This document shows, piece after piece, positions 6,073 through 30,947 of a stretch of DNA of 64,000 nucleotides. Within the stretch, counting starts at the first letter, position 1, and each line of letters opens with the position of its first letter. Both the position numbers and the translations under genes were made by a program. The DNA comes from Bacteroidales bacterium. GTDB taxonomy: Bacteria; Bacteroidota; Bacteroidia; Bacteroidales; ML635J-15. The notes beneath the pieces were generated by a model. That model saw only the letters and a list, made by a program, of their open reading frames with translations. It was not told the DNA's origin and made no database searches. The DNA lies in assembly GCA_003249955.1 (NCBI GenBank), contig QKHS01000043.1, positions 1-64,000 of the forward strand, written 5' to 3'.

Positions 6073-6984
6073 ATGAAAAAATTAAAGTATTTCGATATTT
6101 CATGGTTTTCTTCAGTTGATGGCCCCGGAACCAGGGTTGTATTGTATTTGTCCGGATGTCATTTAAGATGTCCGTGGTGTCATTCTCCACATTCGTGGGA
6201 AATATCATCACCTTTGTTTTTTTTCGAAAGCTGTTGCCACAAATGTGGGATATGTGTGGATACCTGCCCCAACCATGTTCACAGCATTTTAAACGGGACT
6301 CACCTTCTTGACAGAAGTAATTGTATTAAATGTGGTATCTGTATTGAAAATTGTCCGTCCTCTGATATTAACAAATGGAATTCCGGGGCCCTGGGATTTG
6401 CCGGCAAAACAACAGAAGTGAGCGAACTTTACCAGTTACTGAAACCTCAATTAGAATTACTTAAAGAAATTGGCGGATTAACAGTGTCCGGTGGTGATCC
6501 GCTGTTGCAATCAGAAGCCTTGTCTGAACTATTGGAAATCTGCGTAAAAGAAGGAATTCACACAACAGTTGAAACATCGGCAACGCTTGGTAAGACACAT
6601 ATACAGGATTTGTTGCCGTTTGTAGATAATTGGTTAATCGGCATGCGGCCTTATAAGGCAGACAAATCAGAAGACCGGAAACAACTTTTAGAGAATATCG
6701 ATTATTTAGCTAATCACAATCCCAAATCAATAACAATCCGGACACCAATCATACCAGGATATACAGATACACAGTCAACTTATGACACTATTATCGAAAC
6801 TATGCAAAACAACAATCTCGATTCTATAGAAATTCTTCCGTACAATCCTTATTCAGAGAACTACTACAAAGCAATGGGTCTTAATTTTTCTTTAACCGGA
6901 ACTCAACCGCCGGATAATGAAAAGATGGAACAAATAAGATCTGTGTTTACTTCTGCAGGGATAAATGCAAAAATTGTGAATTAA
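6073..6984 (+). CDS. Glycyl-radical enzyme activating protein (PflA-type radical SAM)
   Basis: This protein uses S-adenosylmethionine and a [4Fe-4S] cluster to install the glycyl radical on its partner enzyme, almost certainly the next gene. The radical-SAM signature CxxxCxxC is at residues 29, 33 and 36. Two ferredoxin-type CxxCxxCxxxC sets follow (residues 55-65 and 84-94). This insert is typical of activases of non-PFL glycyl radical enzymes. I chose the ATG at 6073, which gives the family's usual short lead into the FDIxxFSxxDGPGTR segment. An in-frame ATG at 6028 would add 15 residues without family support. The stop codon is 36 bases before the glycyl radical enzyme, consistent with one operon. 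Confidence 0.92.
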   Translation: MKKLKYFDISWFSSVDGPGTRVVLYLSGCHLRCPWCHSPHSWEISSPLFFFESCCHKCGICVDTCPNHVHSILNGTHLLDRSNCIKCGICIENCPSSDINKWNSGALGFAGKTTEVSELYQLLKPQLELLKEIGGLTVSGGDPLLQSEALSELLEICVKEGIHTTVETSATLGKTHIQDLLPFVDNWLIGMRPYKADKSEDRKQLLENIDYLANHNPKSITIRTPIIPGYTDTQSTYDTIIETMQNNNLDSIEILPYNPYSENYYKAMGLNFSLTGTQPPDNEKMEQIRSVFTSAGINAKIVN

Positions 6985-7020
6985 AACTTAACTCTAACCA
7001 AATAATAGGAGATACTAATT

Positions 7021-9873
7021 ATGAACGACTTAACAATGGAAAAAACGATTATTGGTTCTACTCTAAGAATTGATAGTCTGATTAAAGCAATGGAAAAACG
7101 TGCCTGGGCTGACCGGTCATCAGAATGGTTTACAAAAGACATGTTTAACAAAATCGGTGATGAAAACCCCGACAAGACAGTGATTGTTCGCCGGGCACTG
7201 GCTATTGATGAAATTCTTAAAGCCATGACCAATAAAGAACTTTTTAATGGTCAGAATCCACACTACCAGATAAGAGACGGCGAACTGATTGTTGGGGTTA
7301 TAACTCTGGGATCGCTGGGTCTGGGAAAAGCTTTTCCGGATTATCTTACCAAAAGTGAAACGGATGTTGCCGCTATAAGCACAAAATCGGAAATGGGATT
7401 ATTCGGACATAATTCGGTAAATTATGACGTTATGCTTGCAAGAGGGCTTAACGGAATTATCGAAGATTGTGAAAAGGAGCTCAGTGATATTGAAAATAAG
7501 ATTAATCATTATGATAACCTTTTTAAACACTGCGATAAGATTGAAAAGAGCAACGTGTTTATTGAAGAAATATCTGATTTAAAGTCAAACGGAAAAGATA
7601 CCGGAATTGCAGAAAGTCTTAAAGAAGTTTACGAGGAAAACCACGAAAACAAAGGTAACAGAACCACTGCTTATGACCCGGATCTGGTTGACTTGTTTGA
7701 AGGTCTTGAACACCACATTCAGAATAATTTTAAAACAATTACCGATAAGCGTCAGAAAAATCAGGAACAGGTAAATATTCCTTATCTGAAACAAATAAAT
7801 GAAATACTGACAAGCAAAAGAAATATTCTTCATAACAGAAGGGAATTTTACAATTCTGTAAAAATCAGTTGTCAGGCTGTTATTGAGTACGCCGGCCGGT
7901 TTGCAGAACTTGCTGAGGAGATGATGTGGAATGAAACAGACCCTGTACGCAAAGATGAATTAAAAGAAATAAGCAGAATTTGCCGCAAAGTTCCGGCTCA
8001 ACCTGCACATACATTCCACGAAGCCCTTCAGTCTGTTTATTTCTTTCACCTGGCTTTGCACAGCAGCATGAACCAATTGTCGCTTGGCAGACTTGATCAG
8101 ACTCTGCAACCATTCTACAGGGAAGAAGAACATGAAAAGCAGCAGGAACTTTTCGAATGTTTTTTGATTAAATGTGCAGAACGTTTGATTCTGGACTCAA
8201 CTACCTTTGTAAAACAGGATCATTTGGATTATGGCTCAAATTTATTAACTATTCCGGTAGCTCTGGATCAATGGGCAGAATCAAACGAGTTTTTGCAGAA
8301 TATCATTATCGGGGGACAAACCCGCGAAGGTAAAAATGCTGTTAACGACTGCACCTTTCTTATCTTAAAAGCATTTCAGAAAACAAAACTTTACACCCCT
8401 ACCCTTAATGCAAGAATTTTTAACGAACATCTGGAAGGTGGCGAAGAGTCTGAAAAATATCTGAATGCAATATCAGAATGCTTGTTCGAAGCAAAAAACG
8501 GTATGCCGGTTATTGGAAACGATGAAGTTCTGATTCCCGCCATGCATAAAAATTCCGGGATTCCTCTGGAAGAAGCAAGAGATTATGTAATTGACGGTTG
8601 TTGGGAACCATTACTTAACGGCTCCAGCGACTGGACATTCAGAATGTTTAACATGCTTACTGCTCTGGAATGTGCTTTAAACGGAGGTGCAACACTAAGT
8701 TCAAATCCTATATTGTTACGTGGCCAGAAACTTAGTTATGAAACACCACAACCGGCAGTTGACAAAAACATAGGTTTTGAAGGCCTGCAGGAAATTTTAA
8801 GAAGGCACATAAAATTCTTTACAGACAATGCCGCATTAAGCATTTACATGCTTTACTTAATTGATCAGGCAATAAATCCAAATCCGCTATATTCTGCTTT
8901 ATTAAAAGGATGTATGGAGAATGGAAGAGACAAGACCTGGGGTGGAGCAAAATATAAGCTTGCCGGAATTATACCTGCAGCATTACCTGACACTGTAAAT
9001 ACTCTTGCCGCGATAAAGAAATGGGTATATGATAAAAAAGAGTTTGAATTGACAGATGTTTTAGATGCCTTCAGATACAGTTATAAATCTGAAAACAAAG
9101 CACAGCAGGAAATATTCAGTAAAATAAAAAACAGATTTCAGCTTGATTCTCCTAAATTTGGCAATAACGACAAAGCATTGGAAGAAATAATGCAATGGAC
9201 CGTAAACACATTTTACGAATGTGTTAAGGAATCGCAGGCATTAGCCGAAGAAGTATTTTTATATCCTCCCAAAAAAGAAGATGAGGAAAGAATAGTCTCT
9301 CTGAGAGCTTTGGCCGGTTATGCAGGAAAATCCTTAAAAGAAGAATTCGGGAACGATTTCATAATAAACATTACTGCCGGAATGGGAACATTTGAGTTAT
9401 TCGATATTTTTGGCGGCGGGAATGCAGCCTCTGCCGACCGTGATAACGCAGGCGATCCGATTGCCAGAAATTTTGCACCAATGGTCGGCACTACAAATTA
9501 TAGCATCGGACACCTTTTGTCTTCGTTCAAAAATCTTGGACTCGAGCGGTTTGCCGGCGGCGCAATCACCGATTTATGCCTCGAAGAATACGATTTGGGG
9601 AAAAACGGCCCCACCATTATTAAATCTGTTATCCGTAATTTTATCCACAACAATGGCAACATGCTGACAATAACCATTGCAGACAAAAAACAACTTAGCT
9701 TAATATATGATCTGTGTGAGAAAAACAGAGGTGGCAATGAACAAGCTAAAAAAGAGCTAAAACAATATGAGCATATAAATGTCAGGGTTGGCGGATTCCA
9801 GATGCCATTTGTCACTTTGCCACCGAGAATGCAGCAGAGTTATATCGAAAGGCCTATGCCTCCGCTTAATTAG
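7021..9873 (+). CDS. Glycyl radical enzyme, PFL-like, subfamily not assigned
   Basis: This is a pyruvate formate-lyase-like glycyl radical enzyme of 950 residues, longer than the roughly 800-850 of most diol dehydratase, choline lyase and decarboxylase relatives. The thiyl-radical cysteine is Cys527 in a D-G-C-W-E-P context; the usual motif in these families is GC(V/I/S)E. The glycyl radical loop is R-V-G-G-F with Gly925, where most relatives have RV(S/A)GY. The extra length is mostly a charged helical insert at about residues 155-275. The conserved FHEALQS and SLGRLDQ segments are present. I cannot assign the substrate: dehydratase, C-C or C-N lyase and decarboxylase activities all remain possible. 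The activase is directly upstream. Confidence 0.92.
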   Translation: MNDLTMEKTIIGSTLRIDSLIKAMEKRAWADRSSEWFTKDMFNKIGDENPDKTVIVRRALAIDEILKAMTNKELFNGQNPHYQIRDGELIVGVITLGSLGLGKAFPDYLTKSETDVAAISTKSEMGLFGHNSVNYDVMLARGLNGIIEDCEKELSDIENKINHYDNLFKHCDKIEKSNVFIEEISDLKSNGKDTGIAESLKEVYEENHENKGNRTTAYDPDLVDLFEGLEHHIQNNFKTITDKRQKNQEQVNIPYLKQINEILTSKRNILHNRREFYNSVKISCQAVIEYAGRFAELAEEMMWNETDPVRKDELKEISRICRKVPAQPAHTFHEALQSVYFFHLALHSSMNQLSLGRLDQTLQPFYREEEHEKQQELFECFLIKCAERLILDSTTFVKQDHLDYGSNLLTIPVALDQWAESNEFLQNIIIGGQTREGKNAVNDCTFLILKAFQKTKLYTPTLNARIFNEHLEGGEESEKYLNAISECLFEAKNGMPVIGNDEVLIPAMHKNSGIPLEEARDYVIDGCWEPLLNGSSDWTFRMFNMLTALECALNGGATLSSNPILLRGQKLSYETPQPAVDKNIGFEGLQEILRRHIKFFTDNAALSIYMLYLIDQAINPNPLYSALLKGCMENGRDKTWGGAKYKLAGIIPAALPDTVNTLAAIKKWVYDKKEFELTDVLDAFRYSYKSENKAQQEIFSKIKNRFQLDSPKFGNNDKALEEIMQWTVNTFYECVKESQALAEEVFLYPPKKEDEERIVSLRALAGYAGKSLKEEFGNDFIINITAGMGTFELFDIFGGGNAASADRDNAGDPIARNFAPMVGTTNYSIGHLLSSFKNLGLERFAGGAITDLCLEEYDLGKNGPTIIKSVIRNFIHNNGNMLTITIADKKQLSLIYDLCEKNRGGNEQAKKELKQYEHINVRVGGFQMPFVTLPPRMQQSYIERPMPPLN

Positions 9874-9917
9874 TATGTGAAGCAAAACAATAAAATAACC
9901 TTTAAACTTAATTAATT

Positions 9918-11006
9918 ATGAAAAATCTTATGTTTTTAGTCTGGTTATTGTTATTAGCCGGCGTATGTCAGTCGCAGTCATATAAATTTGCAGTATTGTG
10001 CGACACCAGAAGCGACGGAAGTAATTCAGGATTTAACGGGGTAAATGTTTCGGCAATTAAAGCAGTATGTACACACTTAAAAGACTCGGGAGCTGAGATT
10101 GTAATTGCTCCGGGCGATTTCATTTGTGGTAACGTAACCTGGTATAATTCAACACAAACACCTCCCGATAATAGTGTGCAGTATCAGGCATTATTAGATG
10201 CAGCGAGATCAGTCGGAGTTGGACTTCCGGGTGATGGAGAAAAAGTTACTCTTTATCCTGTAAGAGGAAATCATGAATGTTACCAGCAAATTTTACCGGA
10301 AGACAGCATAGAAGAAGCCTGGTTAAAAAGCATTGGTTATTCGCTCACAGGCATGGAGCATCCTGAAGATGAAGCCGGGTTTACCTATAGCTTTGTTTAT
10401 AATGGCTCGCTGTTTATTGGTCTGGATGAGTACATGCATGCAAATGCAACCAAGGACAGCATTATATATGTTAATCAAAAGTGGCTGGACTATGAATTAC
10501 TTAAACACCCTGATTCGAAACACGTATTTGCATTTGGCCATACACCGGCATTTGCTGCTCAACATCAGGATTGTCTGGGACAGGACTCTATTGCCAGAAA
10601 TGCATTTTTACAATCTTTAAACGATAGATCAGGAGTATATTTCTGTGGTCACGACCATTTTTATGCACGTGCAGAGATTCCTGTTTACAGCCGTGGAGGC
10701 GGGATCGAAAACTACATGCAGCAGGTTATAACACCAAGCGGGGCTCCGTTTCTCGGAGGATTCAGCCCCAGATGGAACGGAATATATAAAAATCAAGACG
10801 TAGAAACAGAAACATTTATAGACCATGCAGTAGGATACCAGCTTGTAACTGTGGACGGGAACAAAGTTAATGTTCAGTTTATTGCAACAAATGATGCATG
10901 TACGTTTACAATTGATTCTACCGGGAAGTTTAGTTTTATATATAATGATAACTGGCAGAATTGGAGTTTTGTAGTAATGGATGAGTTTTCCTATGAATTA
11001 CCTTAG
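9918..11006 (+). CDS. Exported calcineurin-like metallophosphoesterase
   Basis: A two-metal phosphoesterase of 362 residues with an N-terminal signal peptide (hydrophobic residues 4-16, then CQSQS). Metal-binding motifs occur in the family order: an Asp-containing first strand with D-T-R (residues 29-31) in place of the usual DxH, G-D (66-67), G-N-H-E (117-120), G-H (207-208) and G-H-D-H (244-247). It probably acts in the periplasm or outside the cell on a phosphomonoester or diester. It lies 44 bases after the glycyl radical enzyme and 62 bases before the aldehyde oxidoreductase, on the same strand. Its role with two cytoplasmic redox enzymes is not obvious. Confidence 0.87.
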   Translation: MKNLMFLVWLLLLAGVCQSQSYKFAVLCDTRSDGSNSGFNGVNVSAIKAVCTHLKDSGAEIVIAPGDFICGNVTWYNSTQTPPDNSVQYQALLDAARSVGVGLPGDGEKVTLYPVRGNHECYQQILPEDSIEEAWLKSIGYSLTGMEHPEDEAGFTYSFVYNGSLFIGLDEYMHANATKDSIIYVNQKWLDYELLKHPDSKHVFAFGHTPAFAAQHQDCLGQDSIARNAFLQSLNDRSGVYFCGHDHFYARAEIPVYSRGGGIENYMQQVITPSGAPFLGGFSPRWNGIYKNQDVETETFIDHAVGYQLVTVDGNKVNVQFIATNDACTFTIDSTGKFSFIYNDNWQNWSFVVMDEFSYELP

Positions 11007-11068
11007 GAATTATACCCTTTTATTTAGCAGGATAACACAAAATATTTTATTAATTTAAAAATTTAACA

Positions 11069-13024
11069 ATGAAGACAAAATACGGATATATGGGTAAAAT
11101 CCTTTGGGTGGATTTAACCAACGGTACTTTCAGGGACGAAGAAATCCCTGATAATGTTTATGAAGAATTTCTTAGTGGCTACGGATTAGCATCAAAAGTT
11201 ATTTACGAAAATCAGCCTGCCGGCATTGACTATAAGGATGAACGCAGTATAATTTCAGTTATGAGCGGCATTTTAACCAATACCGAAGCCACATTTAACG
11301 GTCGCTGGATGTTGGCCGGAAAAAGCCCGTTAACCGGATGCTGGGGAGATGCAAACTGTGGTGGTAATTTTGGGCCTGCTATTAAACAAACCGGCTACGA
11401 TGGTATTTTTATTACCGGCAAAAGCGAAAAACCGGTTTATATTTACATAGATGATGAAACACAACAGATTCTCCCGGCCGATGATTTATGGGGTCATAAA
11501 GATGCTGTTGAAACAGAAATAATACTTAGCGAAAGGCATAGCAAAAAGCCATACAACAATAATGAAAAGAATATGGCTAAAGTAATCAGCATAGGAAGTG
11601 CCGGTGAAAACTGCTCGCTCATATCCGGTGTTGTAAACGATAAAGGCCGCCTTGCCGCACGAAGCGGGTTAGGTGCTTTGTTCGGCACAAAACAACTAAA
11701 AGCTATCTGTCTTAACGACAACCAAACGGTATATGTGTATAACAGCGAGGAGGTAATCAATGCTACCAGAAAGTTAGTCAATGATTTACAAAATTCCACC
11801 GATTCTTTTTGTACTACTATGAAATGGTCGGGAACAGCCGGAACTACAGTAGATTCTGTAAATACAGGAGATTCTCCGATAAAAAACTGGGCAGGTGTTG
11901 CCGAAGATGATTTTCCACAAGAAAAAGCAGCAAAAATAAACGGCTATTCCATTACAAAATACCAAACCGAGGAATATTACTGTGCAGGTTGTGTATTTGG
12001 TTGCGGAGGAACATGTACAGTAAAACAACTTGGATTGAAAGACACTCACCGTCCTGAATATGAAATACTGGCAGGATTCGGGGCTTTGTTGTTATGTGAT
12101 GATGCCATGGCAATTTTCGAAATCAATGAAAAACTGAACCGTGCCGGATTCGATGCTATTAGTGTAGCAACAACCATATCATGGGCATTCGAGGCATGGG
12201 AAAAGGGTTTGTTTAAAGAGAAATTTCCTGACTTAAAACTGGTATGGGGAGATTCTCAGGCTGTAATTAATCTGGTAGATGATATGATCGCAAACAAAAA
12301 TCTGGGAGCTTATCTGAATAATGGTGTAAAGCAAGCAGCCGAACAATTTGATAAAGATGGAATAACTTCTCCTATGCATGTATTCGGACAGGAACTCCCG
12401 ATGCACGATTCCCGTAAAGACGGCTCTCTGACTCTTGGTATAGGATATGAAACAGAACCAACTCCGGGAAGGCATACATCTACCAATGCTCAGTGGGAGC
12501 AAATGGCCGACACTCATGACGTTGACGTTGTCCTTAACAATAACAAGCTGAATATTAAATTCCAGAAAAGATATGTTCATACTGACATGTCACACGAACA
12601 ACAGGGACAGGATTTAATGGCGTCAAGTTGTTCCGAGGATATTATTAACGGAAGCGGGCTTTGCAACTTTAGTTTTATGGGATCTTATGTTCCCATAGTT
12701 AGCTGGATCAATAATGTTACCGGATGGGATAAGTCTTTTAAAGAATATCTGGAAATAGGAAAAAGAATTAAAACAGTCCGGCATTCATTTAATATCAGGG
12801 AAGGTGTTGATGTTGCAAGTATCAGAATGCCTGACCGGGCCAGAGGGAATAACATACTGAAAGACGGGCCCAACGCATATAGCGCAAACGTGTTAAAATG
12901 GGACGATGCCAAAGCCGATTATTATATTTCAATGGGATGGGATGTTGATACCGCTAAACCATCGGCAGAGACATTAAAAACTTTGGGATTGGATTTTGTT
13001 TATAAAGATCTTTATAAAGAATAA
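11069..13024 (+). CDS. Aldehyde:ferredoxin oxidoreductase family protein (W/Mo-pterin)
   Basis: This 651-residue protein belongs to the tungsten/molybdenum bis-pterin aldehyde:ferredoxin oxidoreductase family. The N-terminal domain is full length (GYMGKILWVDLT onward), with pterin-binding segments including the GRW-LAGKSPLTG region at residues 78-90. The four [4Fe-4S] ligands are visible as C305-x2-C308-x3-C312 and C532, matching the spacing in the archaeal enzyme family. Members oxidise aldehydes to acids with ferredoxin as acceptor, or reduce acids in reverse. With a glycyl radical enzyme upstream, one plausible role is oxidation of an aldehyde formed by a dehydratase, but that is inference. 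Cytoplasmic; no signal peptide seen. Confidence 0.92.
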   Translation: MKTKYGYMGKILWVDLTNGTFRDEEIPDNVYEEFLSGYGLASKVIYENQPAGIDYKDERSIISVMSGILTNTEATFNGRWMLAGKSPLTGCWGDANCGGNFGPAIKQTGYDGIFITGKSEKPVYIYIDDETQQILPADDLWGHKDAVETEIILSERHSKKPYNNNEKNMAKVISIGSAGENCSLISGVVNDKGRLAARSGLGALFGTKQLKAICLNDNQTVYVYNSEEVINATRKLVNDLQNSTDSFCTTMKWSGTAGTTVDSVNTGDSPIKNWAGVAEDDFPQEKAAKINGYSITKYQTEEYYCAGCVFGCGGTCTVKQLGLKDTHRPEYEILAGFGALLLCDDAMAIFEINEKLNRAGFDAISVATTISWAFEAWEKGLFKEKFPDLKLVWGDSQAVINLVDDMIANKNLGAYLNNGVKQAAEQFDKDGITSPMHVFGQELPMHDSRKDGSLTLGIGYETEPTPGRHTSTNAQWEQMADTHDVDVVLNNNKLNIKFQKRYVHTDMSHEQQGQDLMASSCSEDIINGSGLCNFSFMGSYVPIVSWINNVTGWDKSFKEYLEIGKRIKTVRHSFNIREGVDVASIRMPDRARGNNILKDGPNAYSANVLKWDDAKADYYISMGWDVDTAKPSAETLKTLGLDFVYKDLYKE

Positions 13025-13292: not shown

Positions 13293-13958
13293 ATGGGTAT
13301 AAAAGTTACTGGCAAAGACCTTATAAAAATTGCAAATTCAGACGATGTTTTCGGGATAATGCAAAGAGTATTGTTACGTGAGAACAAACTGGACAGAGAA
13401 AAAGAACATTTCTGGTTAGTAGGCTTAAATACTGCCAATAAAATGCTTTTTGTTGAATTAATAAGCATAGGCGGAGTAAAAAGCACAACCGTTGAGCCAA
13501 TGAATGTTTTCAGGATGTCGATTTTAAAAGGAGCTGTTAAAGTAATTTTAGTTCATAACCACCCATCAGGAGAAGTAATTCCCTCAGATGCAGATCTTGA
13601 CCTTACCGACCGCCTTATACAAGCCGGTAAAATAATAGACATTGAAGTTATTGACCACCTTATAATCTCAGAAAATACCTACATGAGCTTTAGCAATACC
13701 GGGCGCATGAAAGAACTCCAGGAAAGCACCAAATGGGTTCCGGCTTACGAACTTATAGAGCGCATAAAAAAACAGGAAGCCGAGCTTAGAAAAGAAGCCG
13801 TTAAAATTGCTAAGGAAAAAGGAGAAAAAGACGGAATAAAAAAAGGTAAACTGGAAGAAAAACAGGAAATGGCTAAACAAATGAAAGCCAATAATGAACC
13901 CATTGAAAAAATAGTATTATATACCGGCCTTACCAAAGCAGAGATAGAGAAGCTGTAA
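13293..13958 (+). CDS. RadC-like JAB/MPN domain protein with Rpn-like tail
   Basis: The protein has 221 residues. Residues 20-130 form a RadC-type JAB domain with the metalloprotease-like motif H88-N-H90-P-S-G followed by P-S-D-A-D (97-101) and an upstream Glu55. The helix-hairpin-helix region normally found at the RadC N-terminus is short or absent. From about residue 145 a charged coiled coil is followed by a segment (AKQMK...IVLYTGLTKAEIEKL) resembling the C-terminus of Rpn/PD-(D/E)XK transposase-like proteins. The function of such proteins is not settled; they are common in mobile regions. A TAGCTTTG -7 element at 13263-13270 lies 22 bases before the ATG and supports this start. Confidence 0.82.
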   Translation: MGIKVTGKDLIKIANSDDVFGIMQRVLLRENKLDREKEHFWLVGLNTANKMLFVELISIGGVKSTTVEPMNVFRMSILKGAVKVILVHNHPSGEVIPSDADLDLTDRLIQAGKIIDIEVIDHLIISENTYMSFSNTGRMKELQESTKWVPAYELIERIKKQEAELRKEAVKIAKEKGEKDGIKKGKLEEKQEMAKQMKANNEPIEKIVLYTGLTKAEIEKL

Positions 13959-14509
13959 AACAAACAGGCCACACTATAAATTTTATCACAAACTTTTCCA
14001 TAATTTATTGCCGGTATTTTACCGGGATTATTTGTACTTCTATTAGGAAAATTCATAAAACTTTTGCTGCCCATTGATTAGAAAATGTAGTTGGACTTTG
14101 ATATATTCAAAAGTGCATCAGGCTTGCTAATAGTAATATATGCGCTTAAAAGTAAATTAAAATTATAAAATAAAAACACATTGAATAGCTTGTGTTTATA
14201 GAAAATATTAATTGCTTTCACTTAAAAAAATACAATTTGTCTTGTGAAATAAAAATATTATATATTTTTGAAAAATATTAATGATGGGAGTTGAAAGAGA
14301 GTAATTAATATGGAAAATAGTAAAAGATTTAATAAAAAACCGTTGAGAATTGAATTTGTAATGAATTTCAGATTATTGAAAATAATAAAATAAAAGGTAT
14401 AACTAATTGAAAAATAAATGGCATTGTGGTGGTTACACAATCGTTGTGTTTCATGCTAAGAAAAGACAGTCCAACTAAAGCCAACGCACGTAATGATGAT
14501 AAACATGTT
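13959..14509. other. AT-rich intergenic region before the accessory genes
   Basis: No convincing gene in about 550 bases. Composition becomes markedly more AT-rich here. A short frame at 14310-14393 would encode 27 residues rich in Lys, Arg and Asn after a promoter-like site; it may be a leader peptide or chance. An AACGCAC heptamer at about 14483 also occurs three times in the gap after the next gene, hinting that the large gene is bounded by related cassette sequences. Confidence 0.4.
14242..14270 (+). promoter_or_regulatory. Candidate promoter TTG-N18-TATTTTTG
   Basis: A TTG at 14242-14244 is followed after 18 bases by TATTTTTG (14263-14270), fitting the Bacteroidetes primary sigma consensus TTTG-N19-TAnnTTTG. 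The nearest large gene starts 240 bases downstream, so it would have a long leader, or the promoter serves the short frame at 14310. Confidence 0.4.
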
Positions 14510-17500
14510 ATGACAAAGAAAATCGGAAGAAATGCCCCTTGTCTTTGTGGGAGTGGTAAGAAATATAAAAAGTGTTGTATAGGTTCAGAAAAAGAATTTG
14601 AATTTGCTCAACCCACACCGAGCAATGGGAAAAATAAGACATTTGAATTTATTGAATCAAATAATTCTCACCCATTACTGAATTTTATTATTGGGCTGCA
14701 AATGCAGCCCAATAATCACGGCAAGAATGTGCGAATGGAAGAATTAGCAACACACATTGTTACAAATTTAAACAGCAATCCAAATGGAAATTTAAAGTTG
14801 TTCAAGCAACATCTTGACACAGAATTTGCGTCGAATTATTTGGAAGACATTCCCGAAAATCTTTTTAGTGAAAACATCGTTTTCTATGGCGGAAACTATA
14901 CAGTTTTTTCAGGAATTTACGGATATGCAGTTGAAATCTTCAAAAACTTAACCGAGACAATTTTTACACAAAAAAACGACCTGCCTGACGAATTTAAAAA
15001 TCACGTTTATAGTGGAGTTACTCTACTTTTAGAATTAGGAAAAATACTTTCTACAAAATTTGAAATTGAAGGAAATATTGAAGGAGCACAAGTCGATAGA
15101 AAATTTGGTTATTCAACTGACGAAATTGACACATCTTTTAGTCAAGGCGATATAATTCGAATTTGTCAAGAACATCAAATTGACCCACGAGTCATTAATG
15201 AATTTATTGTTCACCCGAATGACTCAGGCTTTTCAAACAACGACCCTGACAAAAATCCCTTACTAAAAAAGCCAATTATCAAGTTTGAAGACAAGTGTTA
15301 TTTTGTTCTTATTTCAAGCCAAGTAACCGTTTTGAATGAGTTTATCATACGATTGAGCAACAAGTATAATTGCAATCAAAAATTGACGGAATTATATCAC
15401 GATAAACTATGGCACGAACAATGGGGAGCTTGCGACAAAATGGGTTGGCAATTAACAGATATAGTACTATCTCAAAACAACACACCAACGATTTTAAAAG
15501 AACGTGTTTTTCAATTTGAACAAAACAGACTTGCTTACGCTTGTTACGTTCACAATGATAAGGACGAAGAATATTTTTCGGACAAAAATTTAGACATAGA
15601 CAAGCGAATTACAGAAGTAATTACGGAGCTAAAGAAAAATCCGTCAATGAAAGACCATAAATTTCTTTCATTAGTTACTTATGATTGTATGGGGCGTAAT
15701 ATGTTTATTGGATTCGGTGCACCTCAAAAAGACGAACTGCGCTTATCGTTTTCAATGCACCAATTCAACTTTCTTTGCTCTTCTGAAAAATGGGAAAATT
15801 TAAGTTTATGGAAATTTGCAAAGTCTTATGAAATTTTTTCTAAGACCACAAACTCAACATCTACCGATACTTTGGATATGTATTCCATCTACAAAGCTAA
15901 AGACGAAAGTTTTTATTTCGGAGACGATGCACGACCTAATTTTCTTACAGTTCTTCCCGGAGACGGAAGTCGCTTAATAAAAGAAGCAAAAATTAAAAAA
16001 AACAATCACGGTATTTTGAGCCAAATAAAAGGACGAAATGTTTTTATCCCTTCTACAAAATATGCCGACTATGCACCATTATACAAACCATTAAACAGTT
16101 TAGGCTATTACTCTATTTGTTTAAAAGCTTTTGATGTCCCGATTTGGGTAGTTAATCACCAAGTCAAAAACAAATCAATGACAATACAAGTTCGGAACTT
16201 TGCAGAAGCAATCGGTTTTTGGCTTTACAAACTTAAACCTGAAATCGCTAAAATTTTAAATCTAGCTATTTCAAACTTCTTTGAAATAAGCATCATTCTT
16301 GACCAAAAACTTTTTGAAGATACGCAAACAAAAGATATTGTTGAAAACGAAGACGATGACAATTACACTTTCTCATTAAACGAAAACATTTTAGAGTTTT
16401 CAATCCCATTTTCCAAAATGAAAACCTTTACCGGTAGCAATAATTTTGGTGAAAGAGAAATGATGAAAGCGATATTAAATGCATTCAACTTGGTTCCGGG
16501 TATTAGTTTTTCAGTACAAGACATAGTTTCTTTCATTGATAAGTGCATTCCGTTGGGTCAAGCAAAAATGATATTGCTATCCGATAGCCATAAAGACCCA
16601 TTAATCGACAACCGATGGCTTGTAAAACCTTTCTACATAAGCGATTCAGAAGTAGATATATTATTAGATGAAATTCCATTGCTAATTGGACAAACAACAA
16701 AAATCCCTAAAAATATTGACAACGAAGAAGATAAGAAAAAACTTTTCAATATAGCAACGAAGTTGCTGTTAGATACACTAAACAACGAAATTCAAAATTT
16801 TGAATTTGAATTCTTATTGCACGTTCTTTTGGAATTACACGAAACATTAGTGTGGAAAAGAGAACAAAACAAAACGATGATTCCTGCACAAATTCTTTGT
16901 TTTGGAAACATAGAAGGAGAGCTCAAGGAAATTTTAGATAAGGACAATAAATTAGTTAAAACGTCTTTAGCCACAAGATGTTTAATAGAATACGTTGCAG
17001 CTAAACCAACAAATGGAAGTGTAAAAGTAGGTTTTGACGACATTGATAGACTTTTAGTATTGATGCACGAAATAGTAAATTATGGATTTTTAAGTGATGC
17101 TATTCACTTCAAACTTGCAAACCCGACAGTTGGTAAATTAGATTCAGGTAGAATAGGAATTTCAAGAGAGTTTTTTGATGAAAAACTTAAACCGTTTGCC
17201 GAAGCAAACACAAAAGAAGAAGTTAATAGATACATAGAAAATTTTGACAATAGATTTGAAATCGCAAATTTTTCCCAAGAAGAAAAAGAACCAGAAGAGA
17301 ATAAAGAACTAGAAGAAATTGATTCTGCATTTTTAGAAGATTGGGGAATTGGTTACTTGAATATTTACAAATTCTGCTTTAGCAGTTTTATCATTTGTAT
17401 TGAAAAACAGAGTTCCACCTGCTCGATGAAAGAATCTGAATTTATTAAGTTAATTAAGGACAAAACAAAAATTGACGAAAAAGAGATAATCGCAGGTATT

Positions 17501-18256
17501 GAACGATTCTCAATTACACATAGAGATGAATATTTAAAAGCACCTAAAGGCTATAATGATAGCGAAGTTTTTCCTTGGAAATACAATCGTGAATTTAGTT
17601 TTGCAAGAAGATTTATCGTGAAATATAAAAACAATAAAGGCGAGACGATTTTGACTTGGGGATTTAGAAATGCTATTTCTGCACAAAAACAGTTGGATTA
17701 CTTGTTGTTTGAAGGAAAACTAAACAATGGCGGCAAGAGAATAGAAAAACTACTTGGAACTTTTCGTGAGAAAAAAGGGAAACTATACCGTAACAAAGTC
17801 AAAGATTGGCTCAAAACAAATCCCGACTTAAATGTAATTGATTATGAAGTGAAAATTGACACTAACGGACATCTTATTGCAGATAAAAACTATGGCGACA
17901 TTGATGTTTTAGTGCATAACACAAAGACTAACACAGTATACAGTCTTGAATGTAAAGACACGAACAAGGCAAAGAATATTCACGAAATGAAAAAGGAAAT
18001 GGATAGTTATCTTGGACGTGAAGGACAAAAAGGAATGATTCAAAAGCATGTTGAGAGACATAATTGGTTAGAGAGCAATACTGATAAAGTTTGTGCCTTC
18101 TTAAAAATTGAGGAATCAATAAAAGTAGTATCGTATATGTTGACTTCTGAAGTTATTCCAACCTCATATACAAAAGCAGAAGAATTACCGATGCCTATCA
18201 TTGCCTTTCCTGATTTAAAAAGAGAAGGTGTAAAATTATTATATCCGACCCGCTAA
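14510..18256 (+). CDS. Large SEC-C zinc motif protein with PD-(D/E)XK-like nuclease end
   Basis: About 1248 residues from the ATG at 14510, chosen because the SEC-C motif then starts at residue 4; an in-frame ATG at 14426 would add 28 residues that look unrelated. The SEC-C zinc site is C11-x-C13-x8-C22-C23. Most of the protein is a long region I cannot assign, with an acidic stretch near 17280-17340. The C-terminal 140 residues contain G-D-I-D (D1130, D1132) then L-E-C-K (E1147, K1149), the D-x14-E-x-K arrangement of restriction-endonuclease-fold nucleases. Size, AT-rich composition and neighbours suggest an accessory, possibly defence, protein. The function is unknown; the nuclease assignment is from motif only. 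Confidence 0.78.
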   Translation: MTKKIGRNAPCLCGSGKKYKKCCIGSEKEFEFAQPTPSNGKNKTFEFIESNNSHPLLNFIIGLQMQPNNHGKNVRMEELATHIVTNLNSNPNGNLKLFKQHLDTEFASNYLEDIPENLFSENIVFYGGNYTVFSGIYGYAVEIFKNLTETIFTQKNDLPDEFKNHVYSGVTLLLELGKILSTKFEIEGNIEGAQVDRKFGYSTDEIDTSFSQGDIIRICQEHQIDPRVINEFIVHPNDSGFSNNDPDKNPLLKKPIIKFEDKCYFVLISSQVTVLNEFIIRLSNKYNCNQKLTELYHDKLWHEQWGACDKMGWQLTDIVLSQNNTPTILKERVFQFEQNRLAYACYVHNDKDEEYFSDKNLDIDKRITEVITELKKNPSMKDHKFLSLVTYDCMGRNMFIGFGAPQKDELRLSFSMHQFNFLCSSEKWENLSLWKFAKSYEIFSKTTNSTSTDTLDMYSIYKAKDESFYFGDDARPNFLTVLPGDGSRLIKEAKIKKNNHGILSQIKGRNVFIPSTKYADYAPLYKPLNSLGYYSICLKAFDVPIWVVNHQVKNKSMTIQVRNFAEAIGFWLYKLKPEIAKILNLAISNFFEISIILDQKLFEDTQTKDIVENEDDDNYTFSLNENILEFSIPFSKMKTFTGSNNFGEREMMKAILNAFNLVPGISFSVQDIVSFIDKCIPLGQAKMILLSDSHKDPLIDNRWLVKPFYISDSEVDILLDEIPLLIGQTTKIPKNIDNEEDKKKLFNIATKLLLDTLNNEIQNFEFEFLLHVLLELHETLVWKREQNKTMIPAQILCFGNIEGELKEILDKDNKLVKTSLATRCLIEYVAAKPTNGSVKVGFDDIDRLLVLMHEIVNYGFLSDAIHFKLANPTVGKLDSGRIGISREFFDEKLKPFAEANTKEEVNRYIENFDNRFEIANFSQEEKEPEENKELEEIDSAFLEDWGIGYLNIYKFCFSSFIICIEKQSSTCSMKESEFIKLIKDKTKIDEKEIIAGIERFSITHRDEYLKAPKGYNDSEVFPWKYNREFSFARRFIVKYKNNKGETILTWGFRNAISAQKQLDYLLFEGKLNNGGKRIEKLLGTFREKKGKLYRNKVKDWLKTNPDLNVIDYEVKIDTNGHLIADKNYGDIDVLVHNTKTNTVYSLECKDTNKAKNIHEMKKEMDSYLGREGQKGMIQKHVERHNWLESNTDKVCAFLKIEESIKVVSYMLTSEVIPTSYTKAEELPMPIIAFPDLKREGVKLLYPTR

Positions 18257-18394
18257 GCCATGCACATTAAGCAAACGCACATATCAAACGCACAGCCAAA
18301 TTTGCTTAAAGAGCATGTCTCTTCAACGCACGGATTGACAGACAGAATAAAGCACGAAAACACAACACCGTTAGGCATAATTAATAACTAAAAA
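18257..18394 (+). repeat. attC-like gene-cassette boundary
   Basis: This gap contains three copies of AACGCAC (18274, 18287, 18325), an inverted pair AAGCAAA/TTTGCTT (about 18269-18307), and a hairpin AGAG...CTCT. It ends with GTTAGGC (18370-18376), an exact match to the integron R' core GTTRRRY. The next gene begins 18 bases later. I did not find a matching RYYYAAC core at its left side, so this is only partly attC-like. Confidence 0.4.
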
Positions 18395-19156
18395 ATGGCA
18401 ACAAAAAAAACACCTGAATCAAATACCAAAGAAACTTGCTTCGTAATAATGCCTTTTGGAAGTTGGTTTGATAACTATTTTAATGAAATTTATAAACCTG
18501 CAATTATTAATGCTGGGTTACTTCCCAAAAGAGCTGACGATATCTATAGACCAAGTACAATTGTGCAAGATATTTGGAATTATACCCAATCAGCCAAAAT
18601 AGTTTTAGCTGATTTAACTGGTAAAAATGCTAATGTTTTCTACGAATTGGGACTGGCGCATGCATTAGCTAAACCTGCAATATTAGTTACAAATTCTATG
18701 GATGATGTTCCTTTTGATTTAAGAGCCTTGAGAGTAATAGAATACAATAAAAATGATTGTAGTTGGGGGAATGTGCTAAAAGAAAAAATTGAAAAATCAA
18801 TTAAAGAAACTCTTGAGTCTCCATTAAATTCAGTATTACCCGCATTTTTGAACATTACCAGTTCCGAGAAAACAAAGATTACGGTAAACGAAAAAGACTT
18901 TCTCGAATTAAAAAGAGATTTGGAGTTAATGCGAAATGAAATCAGACATTCCTCAAATAGAATTGAAAATAGGATTCCTCCATATGAGGCAATTGAGTTG
19001 ATTAAAAAATATTTAGACAGAGGAATGCCCCCTGAGAATATTGTTGACAGAATGTATAAACATGGTATTGGTGGTAATTGGGTAATAAATAAAATTAATG
19101 AATTATATAACGAGAAAAGTCTTTTTGTATCGGATGAAGAAAAGGAAAATAAATAA
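18395..19156 (+). CDS. Nucleoside 2-deoxyribosyltransferase/TIR-like domain protein
   Basis: The protein has 253 residues. Residues 14-130 match the nucleoside deoxyribosyltransferase-like Rossmann fold seen in many prokaryotic accessory proteins: CFVIMPFG, then RADDIYRPSTIVQDIW, then IVLADLTGKNANVFYELGLAHAL with the Glu expected at the catalytic position, and finally DDVPFDLRALRVIEY. Relatives of this fold hydrolyse nucleotides or NAD-like molecules or sense them in defence. Residues 165-245 are helical, with a coiled-coil stretch and a segment (YLDRGMPPENIVDRMYKHGIGGNWVINKI) that could be a small binding domain. It is flanked by attC-like sequences, as a single-gene cassette would be. The exact activity is not known. 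Confidence 0.8.
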   Translation: MATKKTPESNTKETCFVIMPFGSWFDNYFNEIYKPAIINAGLLPKRADDIYRPSTIVQDIWNYTQSAKIVLADLTGKNANVFYELGLAHALAKPAILVTNSMDDVPFDLRALRVIEYNKNDCSWGNVLKEKIEKSIKETLESPLNSVLPAFLNITSSEKTKITVNEKDFLELKRDLELMRNEIRHSSNRIENRIPPYEAIELIKKYLDRGMPPENIVDRMYKHGIGGNWVINKINELYNEKSLFVSDEEKENK

Positions 19157-19313
19157 CTATGCCTAACAAATTGTATATGGCAGGGGGGGGGGGGTAGCGG
19201 TCTGACTTGTTAGACCTTTCGCCCACTTTCCTGCGGGTCTGACACGATTTCTTCCAGAAATCCCGCCCGACCACATACAAGTGACCGTTACCACACATTA
19301 AAAAATCCGACAT
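19157..19313 (+). repeat. attC-like palindromic site with a 13-base G run
   Basis: It begins with GCCTAAC (19160-19166), an exact RYYYAAC core. TTGTATATGG (19170-19179) pairs with CCACATACAA (19271-19280) in 9 of 10 positions. Inside are a GGTCT/AGACC hairpin (19199-19216) and a GCGGG/CCCGC pair. A GTTACCA at 19287-19293 stands where the second core would be but fits GTTRRRY poorly. This is the layout of an integron recombination site with a long, paired middle. The G run at 19182-19194 is prone to slippage or miscounting. Confidence 0.5.
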
Positions 19314-20357
19314 ATGAACAAAAAGTATCAAATATTTGTGAGTTCAACTTACGAGGACCTAAAAGAAGAACGAGATTTAGTTATAGAAGCAATTCTCGAA
19401 ATGGGACACTTTCCTGTTGGTATGGAGATGTTTAGCACTGGTGATGAACAACAATGGGAATTAATAAAAAAACAAATAGACGATTGCGACTATTATGTTG
19501 TGATTTCAGCATTTCGATATGGTTCTTTGGATGGCGACATAAGTTATACCGAAAAAGAATATGATTATGCAAAATCAATTGGAGTCCCGACTCTTGGATT
19601 TGTTATAAATGAAGGAGTAAATTGGCCTGCTTCCAAGCTGGATAAAGACGCAGTAAAGGTTGAAAAGCTCAGCCTATTTAAAGATAAAATAAAGACAAAA
19701 CTTGTTAGCTATTGGAATGACAAAAACGACTTGTATAGGAAAGTATCGATTGCTTTAATGAAACAATTCAATACTAATCCAAGAATTGGATGGGTGAAAT
19801 CAATAGAATATAATTCTCCCGAAATATTAAGTGAAGTTTCAAGGCTAAGTAAGGAAAATTCAGAACTTAGAGAAAAGATTAATGGTTTTAAAATCAATGA
19901 AAAGAAGGAAGAGGCAGACCATATTGAAAACACACTTAATATTCTGAAAAACAATAAAAGAACTATTTCATTCTTCTATAAATTCGCGAGAGATTGGGAA
20001 AACCCCAAAGACTTTGAACTTTATAAAGTTTTCAATTTAATTGCACCAGAAATAATGATTGAAAACACAACCAATTATTGTATTGATTTTGTTGGAAGAA
20101 TGTTTAATCCTGACAATAAAAAGGAACTAAGGAACACTTATCCAATTCCGACGAATACAATGAAAAGGATTTTAGCAGATTTATCTGTATTAGATTTAAT
20201 TAAACCATCTGACAAGAAACATCAAATAAAAGACACAAATGAATATTGGAGTTTGACAGATTTTGGGAAAAAGGTTTACAAGATGATACGTCAAGAGATA
20301 ATGTTAAAATTATTGGATGAAAGTATTGATTCGACTCCAACTGATGAAAAAAAATAA
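19314..20357 (+). CDS. DUF4062 domain protein
   Basis: The protein has 347 residues. Residues 1-115 match DUF4062: YQIFVSSTYEDLKEERD, then MEMF, DYYVVISAFRYGS and SYTEKEYDYA. This domain is common at the N-terminus of proteins in defence and signalling islands and has a TIR/flavodoxin-like look. A coiled coil spans about residues 178-215. The C-terminal 100 residues contain a probable winged helix (NTMKRILADLSVLDLI, then YWSLTDFGKKVYKMI). It follows the nucleoside deoxyribosyltransferase-like gene across an attC-like site. It may be a sensor with a DNA-binding or protein-binding tail; the function is unproven. Confidence 0.8.
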   Translation: MNKKYQIFVSSTYEDLKEERDLVIEAILEMGHFPVGMEMFSTGDEQQWELIKKQIDDCDYYVVISAFRYGSLDGDISYTEKEYDYAKSIGVPTLGFVINEGVNWPASKLDKDAVKVEKLSLFKDKIKTKLVSYWNDKNDLYRKVSIALMKQFNTNPRIGWVKSIEYNSPEILSEVSRLSKENSELREKINGFKINEKKEEADHIENTLNILKNNKRTISFFYKFARDWENPKDFELYKVFNLIAPEIMIENTTNYCIDFVGRMFNPDNKKELRNTYPIPTNTMKRILADLSVLDLIKPSDKKHQIKDTNEYWSLTDFGKKVYKMIRQEIMLKLLDESIDSTPTDEKK

Positions 20358-29711: not shown

Positions 29712-30947
29712 ATGAAAACAAGGCTATTTTTACTTTCAGTTATAATAATGCTTGCTGTTTTAAGTGCTTGCAAAGACGATAAAAACAATAAAGATGTAAA
29801 AGAAATAAAGCTTACTGCAAAACAGCAGGAAATTGCTGTTGCCGGAAACGAATTCTCTCTGGGACTGTTTCAAAAAGTAGCAGAATCGGAAACAGAAGAC
29901 AATTTTATGATTTCACCTCTCAGCATTAATTATGCAATGGCTATGACTACCAACGGGGCAAAGAACAATACCCTTAATCAAATGCTTGCCGCTATGGGAT
30001 TTACCGATTTCAGTTTGTCCGAATTCAACAATTATTTCGGTTATGTTATGGACGAGCTTGTAGGTTTAGACCAGAATGTTAACCTTTCTGTTGCTAACTC
30101 TATTTGGTACCGTAACGGTTTTACAGTTCTCCCTGAATTTCTCGATATAAACCAGCAATATTACGATGCAGAAATTACCGCACTTAATTTTGATTCTCCT
30201 GATGCTGTAAACACCATCAATAACTGGGTTTCGGAAGCTACAAACAATAAAATTCCTACAATTATCGAAAGCATTAGTGCCGATGTGGTAATGTATCTTA
30301 TTAATGCAGTTTATTTTCACGGAACATGGAAATATGAATTCGATCAGTCTCAAACACAAACGCAAAATTTTTATCTTCAGAACTCTCAAGCCATTGAAAC
30401 AGAAATGATGAAAATGGAAGCGGAACTTAAGTTTTACTATGACGCGGACATTTCGATGGTTGAACTGCCATATGGTAATGGGGACTTTGTAATGGATATA
30501 ATCTTACCTTCGTCAGAGAATTCCGCCGCTGATATTGTTACTGATCTTGATAATGAAAGATTTACAGAAATTACTCAGGGGTTGGCTAACAACAATATTG
30601 TTTTGTCAATGCCTAAATTTAAGTTCTCATTTGAAAACAGCTTAATTCCTGCTTTACAATCTTTGGGAATGTCCGACTTGTTTATTGAAGGTGTTGCTGA
30701 CTTATCAGGAATAAATGGAGACGGAGGTTTATTTGTTTCGGACGTTAAACATAAAACATATATAGATGTTAATGAAGCGGGGACTGAAGCCGCCGCGGTA
30801 ACTTCGGTTGAAGTAGGTACTACATCTGTTGACCCGAATGCTCCTTTATATCTTAACGTTGATCATCCTTTTATTTTTGTTATCCGTGAAACCGGAACAG
30901 GAATTATTTTATTTACCGGAGTAGTAAGAAATCCTGAGCAGGAATAA
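29712..30947 (+). CDS. Serpin family lipoprotein
   Basis: The protein has 411 residues. The N-terminus is a lipoprotein signal with lipobox L-S-A-C (Cys20), so it should sit on the outer or inner membrane. The rest is a full serpin: N-F-M-I-S-P-L-S-I near residue 65, Y-L-I-N-A-V-Y-F-H-G near 195, and the breach/C-terminal D-H-P-F-I-F-V-I-R. The reactive loop hinge is E-A-G-T-E-A-A-A-V-T, small residues as in inhibitory serpins; by counting from the hinge Gly, P1-P1' would be about Thr-Ser. It may protect the cell from the adjacent secreted cysteine protease or from host enzymes; the target is not known. Confidence 0.92.
   Translation: MKTRLFLLSVIIMLAVLSACKDDKNNKDVKEIKLTAKQQEIAVAGNEFSLGLFQKVAESETEDNFMISPLSINYAMAMTTNGAKNNTLNQMLAAMGFTDFSLSEFNNYFGYVMDELVGLDQNVNLSVANSIWYRNGFTVLPEFLDINQQYYDAEITALNFDSPDAVNTINNWVSEATNNKIPTIIESISADVVMYLINAVYFHGTWKYEFDQSQTQTQNFYLQNSQAIETEMMKMEAELKFYYDADISMVELPYGNGDFVMDIILPSSENSAADIVTDLDNERFTEITQGLANNNIVLSMPKFKFSFENSLIPALQSLGMSDLFIEGVADLSGINGDGGLFVSDVKHKTYIDVNEAGTEAAAVTSVEVGTTSVDPNAPLYLNVDHPFIFVIRETGTGIILFTGVVRNPEQE

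What the first reader, a model, noticed from the sequence alone, without database searches (positions are those of the whole stretch)
6073..13024. Glycyl radical enzyme, activase, exported phosphoesterase and W/Mo aldehyde oxidoreductase in one cluster
Four plus-strand genes with small gaps (36, 44 and 62 bases) combine a glycyl radical enzyme of unassigned type with an aldehyde:ferredoxin oxidoreductase. A dehydratase-type radical enzyme yields an aldehyde, which the oxidoreductase could oxidise to an acid while giving low-potential electrons to ferredoxin. I do not know of a described pathway with this set. The phosphoesterase is exported, so it might release the substrate from a phosphorylated precursor outside the cell. 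Direction and substrate are inference.
Basis: partly seen in the sequence, partly recalled or inferred. Interest (0 to 1): 0.72.

Follow-up and report, generated by a model that had tools for sequence, protein, structure and literature searches.

The report
Unassigned radical enzyme with phosphatase partners
The window holds a compact gene set for a radical enzyme of an unassigned family, with an exported phosphatase and an aldehyde-oxidising tungsten/molybdenum enzyme that recur beside some of its relatives, while a few relatives are joined to a peroxidase instead of having the usual activating enzyme.

Summary
The glycyl radical enzyme (GRE) has the GRE fold by model and keeps Cys527, Glu529 and Gly925, but stays under the cut-off of every GRE family model it matched in NCBIfam. 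With 38 relatives it forms one side of a branch (SH-aLRT 100) against 24 other GREs, CutC and HypD included. The set is real: one AOR subfamily lies beside 10 of 39 clade GREs, and in a draw of 295 genomes of the order it occurs in 3, each time beside this GRE. The phosphatase slot is filled by unrelated families (12 HAD-type, 6 calcineurin-type, 1 alkaline phosphatase, 2 5'-nucleotidases); 20 of 21 have a hydrophobic N-terminus. The two main types are in 15 of 34 clade loci and 0 of 46 other GRE loci. Most likely the phosphatase frees a polar substrate outside the cytoplasm, the GRE eliminates water or an amine to give an aldehyde, and AOR oxidises it, reducing ferredoxin. Substrate and reaction are inferred. 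Unexpected: four relatives from genera known as aerobic are fused or adjacent to a DyP peroxidase; the two of these whose genomes were searched have no match near the GRE-activase cut-off.

The parts
6073..6984 (+). Radical SAM glycyl-radical-enzyme activase (longest ORF starts 6028)
   Evidence: TIGR02494 205 bits, over cut-off 174.35; CxxxCxxC in the sequence and Fer4 dicluster matches; an activase is adjacent in 33 of 39 clade loci
7021..9873 (+). Glycyl radical enzyme of an unassigned clade, 950 aa
   Evidence: PF02901 373.7 bits; AlphaFold model pLDDT 87.6, top fold match 1r8w TM 0.79 by target; clade on one side of a branch, SH-aLRT 100
8599..8607 (+). Codons of Cys527-Trp528-Glu529 (predicted thiyl Cys and acid/base Glu)
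   Evidence: C, W and E each 35 of 35 in alignment A4
9793..9795 (+). Codon of Gly925, predicted radical glycine (RVGGF)
   Evidence: 35 of 35 in A4; aligned to the glycine of the RVAGY motif of solved GREs
9918..11006 (+). Calcineurin-like phosphoesterase with export-type N-terminus
   Evidence: PF00149 37.2 bits; best 11-residue hydropathy 2.96 near the N-terminus; GD, GNHE, GH and GHDH motifs invariant in 6; weak purple-acid-phosphatase match E 0.007
11069..13024 (+). Aldehyde:ferredoxin oxidoreductase (W or Mo pterin, metal not determined)
   Evidence: PF02730 and PF01314; 238 bits to 1aor; CxxCxxxC plus SGLCNF cysteine and PTPGRH kept; MoaC in genome

Best explanation
The four genes are one functional unit for catabolism of an extracellular phosphate monoester in a fermenting anaerobe. 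Step 1 (inferred): the exported phosphatase removes the phosphate and the free polar molecule enters the cell. Step 2 (the enzyme class is supported by sequence and predicted fold, the reaction is inferred): the activase installs a radical on Gly925; Cys527 abstracts a hydrogen next to a leaving group and Glu529 helps to expel water or an amine, giving an aldehyde. Step 3 (enzyme class by sequence, reaction inferred): AOR oxidises the aldehyde to an acid and reduces ferredoxin, which the cell can re-oxidise by [FeFe] hydrogenases or Rnf. The substrate is probably a polyol or amino alcohol, bound differently from glycerol, propanediol or choline in the known enzymes.
For: Order and content recur: activase-GRE-phosphatase-AOR (7 loci) or phosphatase-activase-GRE-AOR (3 loci) in 10 of 39 distinct clade loci, in Bacteroidota and Geobacteraceae. 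The linked AORs are at least 49% identical to each other over alignments of more than 470 residues (the 189-aa piece of the split L058 AOR falls to 40% against L042) and at most 33% to other AORs found in these genomes; 3 of 295 order genomes hold the subfamily, all beside the GRE. Phosphatases of four families occupy the slot in 21 of 39 loci, and the type changes at least 6 times on the GRE tree, with a hydrophobic N-terminus (best 11-residue mean 2.43-3.51) in 20 of 21; medians for GRE, activase and AOR are 1.18, 1.46 and 1.50, though one activase reaches 2.47. Locus L108 pairs window-like phosphatase (61-66%) and AOR (75-80%) with a GRE 45-46% identical to the window group and 58-60% to the HAD-phosphatase group. 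Control: 46 non-clade GRE loci hold 0 of either main phosphatase and 1 distant AOR. Genome G000 has MoaC, 3 AFOR_C matches, 6 matches to the [FeFe]-hydrogenase model and one RnfC. The top fold matches are glycerol and propanediol dehydratases, closely followed by other GREs.
Against: AOR is not found beside 29 of 39, nor a recognised phosphatase beside 18 of 39 (some are contig edges, and not all neighbours were scanned against Pfam). The closely related L041 (79%) has neither. No dedicated transporter was recognised; ABC-type ATPases occur within about 9 kb in 10 loci and were not followed up. Both 5'-nucleotidase genes run opposite to the GRE, and one lacks a hydrophobic N-terminus. PLD-like and XendoU neighbours in other members hint at a nucleic-acid or lipid derived substrate. 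Fold does not single out a reaction. No activity, substrate or direction is shown.
Confidence: 0.5

Rival explanations
1. The unit handles products of phosphodiester breakdown (nucleotides, lipid head groups): PLD-like or EndoU enzymes cut diesters, phosphatases free the nucleoside or alcohol, and the GRE acts on that.
For: PLD-like gene next to or within two genes of the GRE in 5 distinct loci (two Geobacteraceae, a Neomarinimicrobiota, a Bacteroidales and Hymenobacter); XendoU next to the GRE in L070 and three genes away in L082; 5'-nucleotidases beside L044 and L068.
Against: None of these was recognised beside the GRE in the window or in the other Bacteroidota loci that carry AOR (two Geobacteraceae AOR loci do have the PLD-like gene); the PLD-like and XendoU proteins may serve something else.
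Confidence: 0.2
2. The GRE makes a product that is not an aldehyde (C-C cleavage or decarboxylation), and AOR works separately, for example on aldehyde detoxification or in the reductive direction, acid to aldehyde.
For: AOR is not adjacent in 29 of 39 loci; the abstract start of PMC9295118, seen in the listing, says that AORs also reduce acids.
Against: Close linkage of this one AOR subfamily to this GRE; the C-x-E motif resembles the eliminase group.
Confidence: 0.2
3. The four genes are neighbours by chance or by a general tendency of anaerobe operons.
For: The close GRE relative L041 (79%) has no phosphatase or AOR next to it.
Against: as above.
Confidence: 0.03

Closest known systems
B12-independent glycerol / 1,2-propanediol dehydratase (1r8w, 5i2g, 9rcp)
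   Same: Top fold matches; C-x-E active-site motif; His at the position of His164 (35 of 35)
   Different: 20-22% identity; the aligned substrate residues His281 and Ser282 are not kept and Asp447 falls in a gap (residue numbers checked on the printed alignment, roles recalled); extra conserved QDH...LDQ...NxFLQN segment
Choline TMA-lyase CutC
   Same: GCxEP and WT motifs (Glu491 and Thr502 equivalents); highest-scoring solved sequence by profile
   Different: CutC Asp216 position is His (numbering and role recalled); 218.8 bits against cut-off 1050; outside the clade on the tree
YbiW / PflD anhydrohexitol-6-phosphate GREs
   Same: GRE with a sugar phosphatase gene next door in E. coli (ybiV); PDB titles 8id7 and 8id0 name sugar-phosphate ligands
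   Different: No AOR in the E. coli stretches seen; YbiW and PflD lie outside the clade; YbiV is cytoplasmic as far as recalled
Pyrococcus AOR (1aor) and E. coli YdhV (PRK09849)
   Same: Domain set and Fe-S cysteine pattern
   Different: YdhV model 159.7 bits against cut-off 868; this subfamily is GRE-linked wherever seen here

Membership tests
Glycyl radical enzyme superfamily | PFL/dehydratase-type barrel fold | tested here: met
   AlphaFold pLDDT 87.6, pTM 0.88; the 50 listed PDB matches are GREs, TM by target 0.67-0.81
Glycyl radical enzyme superfamily | Active-site Cys and C-terminal radical Gly | tested here: met
   C527 and G925 in 35 of 35; Pfam Gly_radical PF01228 itself is not reached in the window protein
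Glycyl radical enzyme superfamily | Dedicated radical SAM activase | tested here: met
   Window activase over TIGR02494 cut-off; not met in the two DyP-linked genomes searched
Glycerol/propanediol dehydratase | Substrate residues of 1r8w: His164, His281, Ser282, Asp447 (roles recalled) | tested here: not met
   Only His164 kept (35 of 35); 281 is N20 D9 S4 V1 I1, 282 variable, Asp447 in a gap
Glycerol/propanediol dehydratase | TIGR01774 (PFL2-3) cut-off 678.2 | tested here: not met
   272.1 bits
Choline TMA-lyase | TIGR04394 cut-off 1050 and Asp216 | tested here: not met
   218.8 bits; the aligned residue is His
trans-4-hydroxyproline dehydratase | NF043068 cut-off 1100 | tested here: not met
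   190.3 bits
Sulfopropanediol dehydratase, indoleacetate and hydroxyphenylacetate decarboxylases | NCBIfam equivalog cut-offs of 1000-1150 | tested here: not met
   203.4, 196.9, 145.8 and 104.2 bits
Aldehyde:ferredoxin oxidoreductase | AFOR_N and AFOR_C domains, four Fe-S cysteines, pterin cofactor supply | tested here: met
   MoaC in G000
Aldehyde:ferredoxin oxidoreductase | Metal (W or Mo) and activity | not testable with these tools
   needs purified enzyme
Calcineurin-like phosphatase | GD, GNHE, GH, GHDH metal-ligand motifs | tested here: met
   Invariant in 6 of 6; the first motif is DTR instead of the usual DxH or DxG (usual form recalled)

The most novel reading that the evidence does not exclude
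In the DyP-linked members of this clade a heme DyP peroxidase, fused to or next to the enzyme, replaces the radical SAM activase and makes the glycyl (or a functionally equivalent) radical with hydrogen peroxide, so that a glycyl radical enzyme works in oxygen-breathing bacteria. The same enzyme core would then have two unrelated activators, and the window would hold the anaerobic version.
Probability: 0.22. Interest if true: 0.93.

Novelty: new variant of a known kind. Interest (0 to 1): 0.7.

Why it matters
It defines a GRE clade with no assigned reaction, gives it a strong functional context (repeated recruitment of non-homologous phosphatases with export-type N-termini, and one dedicated AOR subfamily), and so narrows the substrate search to molecules freed from phosphate esters. 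If the DyP-linked relatives are active, they would break the rule that GREs need a radical SAM activase, and would open an aerobic radical chemistry that can be tested directly.

Tried and rejected
Chance neighbourhood: rejected by the AOR co-occurrence and by the non-clade control. Choline lyase and glycerol/propanediol dehydratase: rejected by model cut-offs, aligned residues and, for CutC, the tree. RNA regulators: at gathering scores Rfam finds only one tRNA in the whole window and, in 7 loci given, one DUF805 RNA about 6 kb from the GRE in L053. Viral contigs: 20 pattern hits, none a relative. More DyP-linked members: in the Chryseobacterium family draw 1 of 246, which is G277 itself; in the Bizionia class draw 2 of 295, Bizionia itself and G997, whose match lies at nearly the coordinates of the Bacteroides ihuae GRE. 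One grouping of the four DyP-linked rows is rejected on the quick tree (AU p 0.0049; long branches, and the group was named after the tree was seen), so the link is either ancestral to the clade or was gained more than once. PADLOC has no match for the window GRE, L070 or the first Hymenobacter piece. The pdb_via library was not available. A model of the phosphoesterase was not run. No sequence similarity network was made.

L047 lacks its 5' side, L054 and L055 end at the GRE, L050 showed no activase ORF, and the L062 GRE has its first part in a separate frame. L058's AOR is in two ORFs and was left out. The short HAD fragment beside the Hymenobacter GRE (PF12710 E 0.0019, under cut-off) is not counted. 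The genome-contig scan kept 80 of 100 relatives and needs exact peptide patterns, so the clade is under-sampled (Hymenobacter and Asticcacaulis were found another way). The control loci differ in taxa from the clade loci; 44 of 46 gave a GRE hit and 41 an activase hit in an ORF. In the control only the two main phosphatase types plus one AlkP, two 5'-nucleotidase and two PLD queries were sought (none), not every phosphatase family. The trees are quick ones without bootstrap. Of 24 outgroup rows only CutC, HypD, a PFL2/glycerol-dehydratase-type GRE, GrpM, YbiW and PflD carry a name; the glycerol dehydratase 1r8w itself is not in the tree.

Full report
OBSERVATION. The window carries four plus-strand ORFs with gaps of 36, 44 and 62 bases. 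Family models name them: radical SAM GRE activase (TIGR02494 205 bits, cut-off 174.35), GRE (PF02901 373.7 bits), calcineurin-like phosphoesterase (PF00149 37.2 bits, cut-off 21.5) and AOR (PF02730 and PF01314). The window is contig C79 of a 4.7-Mb genome, 99.8% complete, with one PF02901 match.

THE RADICAL ENZYME. It stays under the cut-off of all eight NCBIfam models it matches: PFL2-3 272.1 of 678.2 bits, CutC 218.8 of 1050, HypD 190.3 of 1100, and the others likewise. The AlphaFold model (pLDDT 87.6, pTM 0.88, 35 sequences) has the GRE fold: the first of the 50 listed PDB matches is glycerol dehydratase 1r8w (TM by target 0.79, 20% identity), and GREs of very different function score almost the same (0.67-0.81), so fold does not single out a reaction. 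In 35 of 35 aligned members Cys527, Trp528, Glu529, Arg922, Gly924 and Gly925 are invariant, and so are Gln399, Asp400, Asp416, Gln417, Asn422, Phe424, Gln426 and Asn427, in a segment longer than the matching loop of glycerol dehydratase and CutC. The position of CutC Asp216 and glycerol dehydratase His164 is His in 35 of 35, while glycerol dehydratase His281, Ser282 and Asp447 are not kept (roles and CutC numbering recalled). Trp528 is Tyr in the Hymenobacter and Asticcacaulis members, which are not in that alignment. So it looks like a C-x-E eliminase with a different pocket.

THE CLADE. A scan of the collection of 84,980 species genomes returned 80 loci, of which 34 are clade members (at least 36% identity over nearly the whole length). 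With loci there are 39 distinct loci, the window included. On a quick maximum-likelihood tree the 39 rows are one side of a branch, SH-aLRT 100, against 20 other GREs including E. coli YbiW and PflD, and again after adding annotated CutC, HypD, a PFL2/glycerol-dehydratase-type GRE and GrpM (24 outgroup rows). Members occur in Bacteroidales, Chlorobiaceae, Geobacteraceae, Fibrobacter, Lachnospiraceae, Neomarinimicrobiota and others by record title, but sporadically: 3 of 395 genomes in a phylum draw besides the window's own at E below 1e-130, 5 of 295 in the order at E below 1e-150 including the window's own, and 1 of 246 in the family of G277, namely G277.

THE PARTNERS. A radical SAM activase is adjacent in 33 of 39; the exceptions are four DyP-linked loci, one contig edge (L047) and L050. 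A phosphatase is the second partner in 21 of 39: the window's calcineurin type in 6, a HAD type (like 4ovy) in 12, directly after the GRE in all 12, an alkaline phosphatase in 1 (L045, 6 bases before the activase) and 5'-nucleotidases in 2 (L044 divergent, L068 convergent). The type changes at least 6 times on the tree, where three changes would be the least possible for four types. A hydrophobic N-terminus is present in 20 of 21, not in L068; this is a simple hydropathy rule, not a signal-peptide program, and one activase scores as high as the weakest phosphatase. AOR is the third partner in 10 of 39. These AORs are at least 49% identical to each other over alignments of more than 470 residues (a 189-aa piece of the split L058 gene: 40% to L042) and at most 33% to other AORs found in these genomes. 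Among 295 order genomes the subfamily is found in 3 (at or above 728 bits; the next match is 243 bits), each time beside the GRE. L108 combines a window-like phosphatase (61-66%) and AOR (75-80%) with a GRE 45-46% identical to the window group, 58-60% to the HAD group and 54-59% to the Geobacteraceae: parts have been exchanged while the set stayed whole. In 46 non-clade GRE loci (581 kb, against 602 kb for 34 clade loci) there are 0 of either main phosphatase, 0 DyP and 1 distant AOR of 87 bits; Fisher p is 2.8e-7 for the two phosphatases (15 of 34 against 0 of 46) and 0.009 for AOR (7 of 34 against 1 of 46). Against this reading: 18 of 39 loci have no recognised phosphatase and 29 no adjacent AOR, among them the close relative L041.

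PHYSIOLOGY. G000 has MoaC and three AFOR_C matches; two clade genomes without AOR (G238, G277) also lack MoaC, whereas two others without AOR (G121, G475) have it. G000 has six matches to the [FeFe]-hydrogenase model and one RnfC, so reduced ferredoxin has likely outlets.

HOW IT MOST LIKELY WORKS. The phosphatase frees a polar molecule outside the cytoplasm; the activated GRE eliminates water or an amine; the aldehyde is oxidised by AOR with ferredoxin reduction. Shown by computation: gene set, families, predicted fold, conserved residues, linkage, hydrophobic N-termini. Inferred: export, substrate class, reaction, direction, electron path.

THE PEROXIDASE RELATIVES. In Chryseobacterium defluvii (1304 aa) and an uncultured Bizionia (1266 aa) the GRE is the C-terminal part of a protein with an N-terminal DyP peroxidase. 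An Asticcacaulis plasmid encodes a 1326-aa protein of the same kind, and a Hymenobacter plasmid has a GRE in two ORFs followed by a DyP gene. All four keep the GRE Cys, Glu and Gly motifs. The C. defluvii DyP keeps GFRDG and CPFHAHIRKAN, Bizionia GFQDG and CPFHAHGRKVN (motif roles recalled); the Asticcacaulis and Hymenobacter DyP parts have no GxxDG match, and Asticcacaulis reaches only the DyP C-terminal model, so two of four may be altered. No activase gene is adjacent in the stretches seen. In the whole genomes of C. defluvii and Bizionia the best TIGR02494 scores are 26.1 and 40.4 bits, against 183.8-204.8 in three activase-bearing clade genomes; the other two genomes could not be searched beyond their plasmid. 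[quoted passage not shown] A peroxidase as the radical source is therefore the boldest reading; it rests on four loci and no experiment, and the fused domain could instead protect against peroxide or the GRE fold could serve other chemistry.

LITERATURE. Searches for GRE with AOR, with phosphatase or tungsten, with similarity networks or neighbourhoods, with anhydroglucitol, and with DyP or peroxidase (listings only, apart from the passages) showed no paper whose title or abstract start describes this set or the fusion. The library lacks most subscription journals, so absence from print is not established.

Noticed in passing
L082:7582-11496, L070:7675-11475, L161:5636-9616, L036:7548-10887: DyP peroxidase fused or adjacent to clade GREs, with SUMF1-like genes next to or within two genes of three of them; no match near the GRE-activase cut-off in the two genomes searched.
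   Followed up: partly
L048:13549-15177, L062:13453-15114, L056:11589-13934, L066:11571-13919, L036:11383-13164: A PLD-like protein family recurs near the GRE in both activase-bearing and DyP-bearing members.
   Followed up: partly
L052:242-1216 and L161:3518-4588: A DUF2278 plus lamin-tail-domain protein lies upstream of the GRE in both a Bacillota MAG and Asticcacaulis.
   Followed up: no
window 14426-20357: SEC-C protein with a PADLOC Upx match (133 bits), a TIR-effector match (37.6 bits) and a DUF4062 protein in a row: possible defence island.
   Followed up: no
window 29712-30947 and 51967-54051: A serpin, and a C10 peptidase with Spi inhibitor, CUB and Por secretion tail.
   Followed up: no
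window 13293-13958: RadC-like JAB domain followed by a C-terminal stretch weakly matching the Rpn family model (37.3 bits, under its cut-off of 52.1).
   Followed up: no
L041 and L053 (same MAG, JACABB01): One genome carries two clade GREs: a window-type one without phosphatase or AOR beside it, and one with HAD phosphatase and AOR.
   Followed up: no
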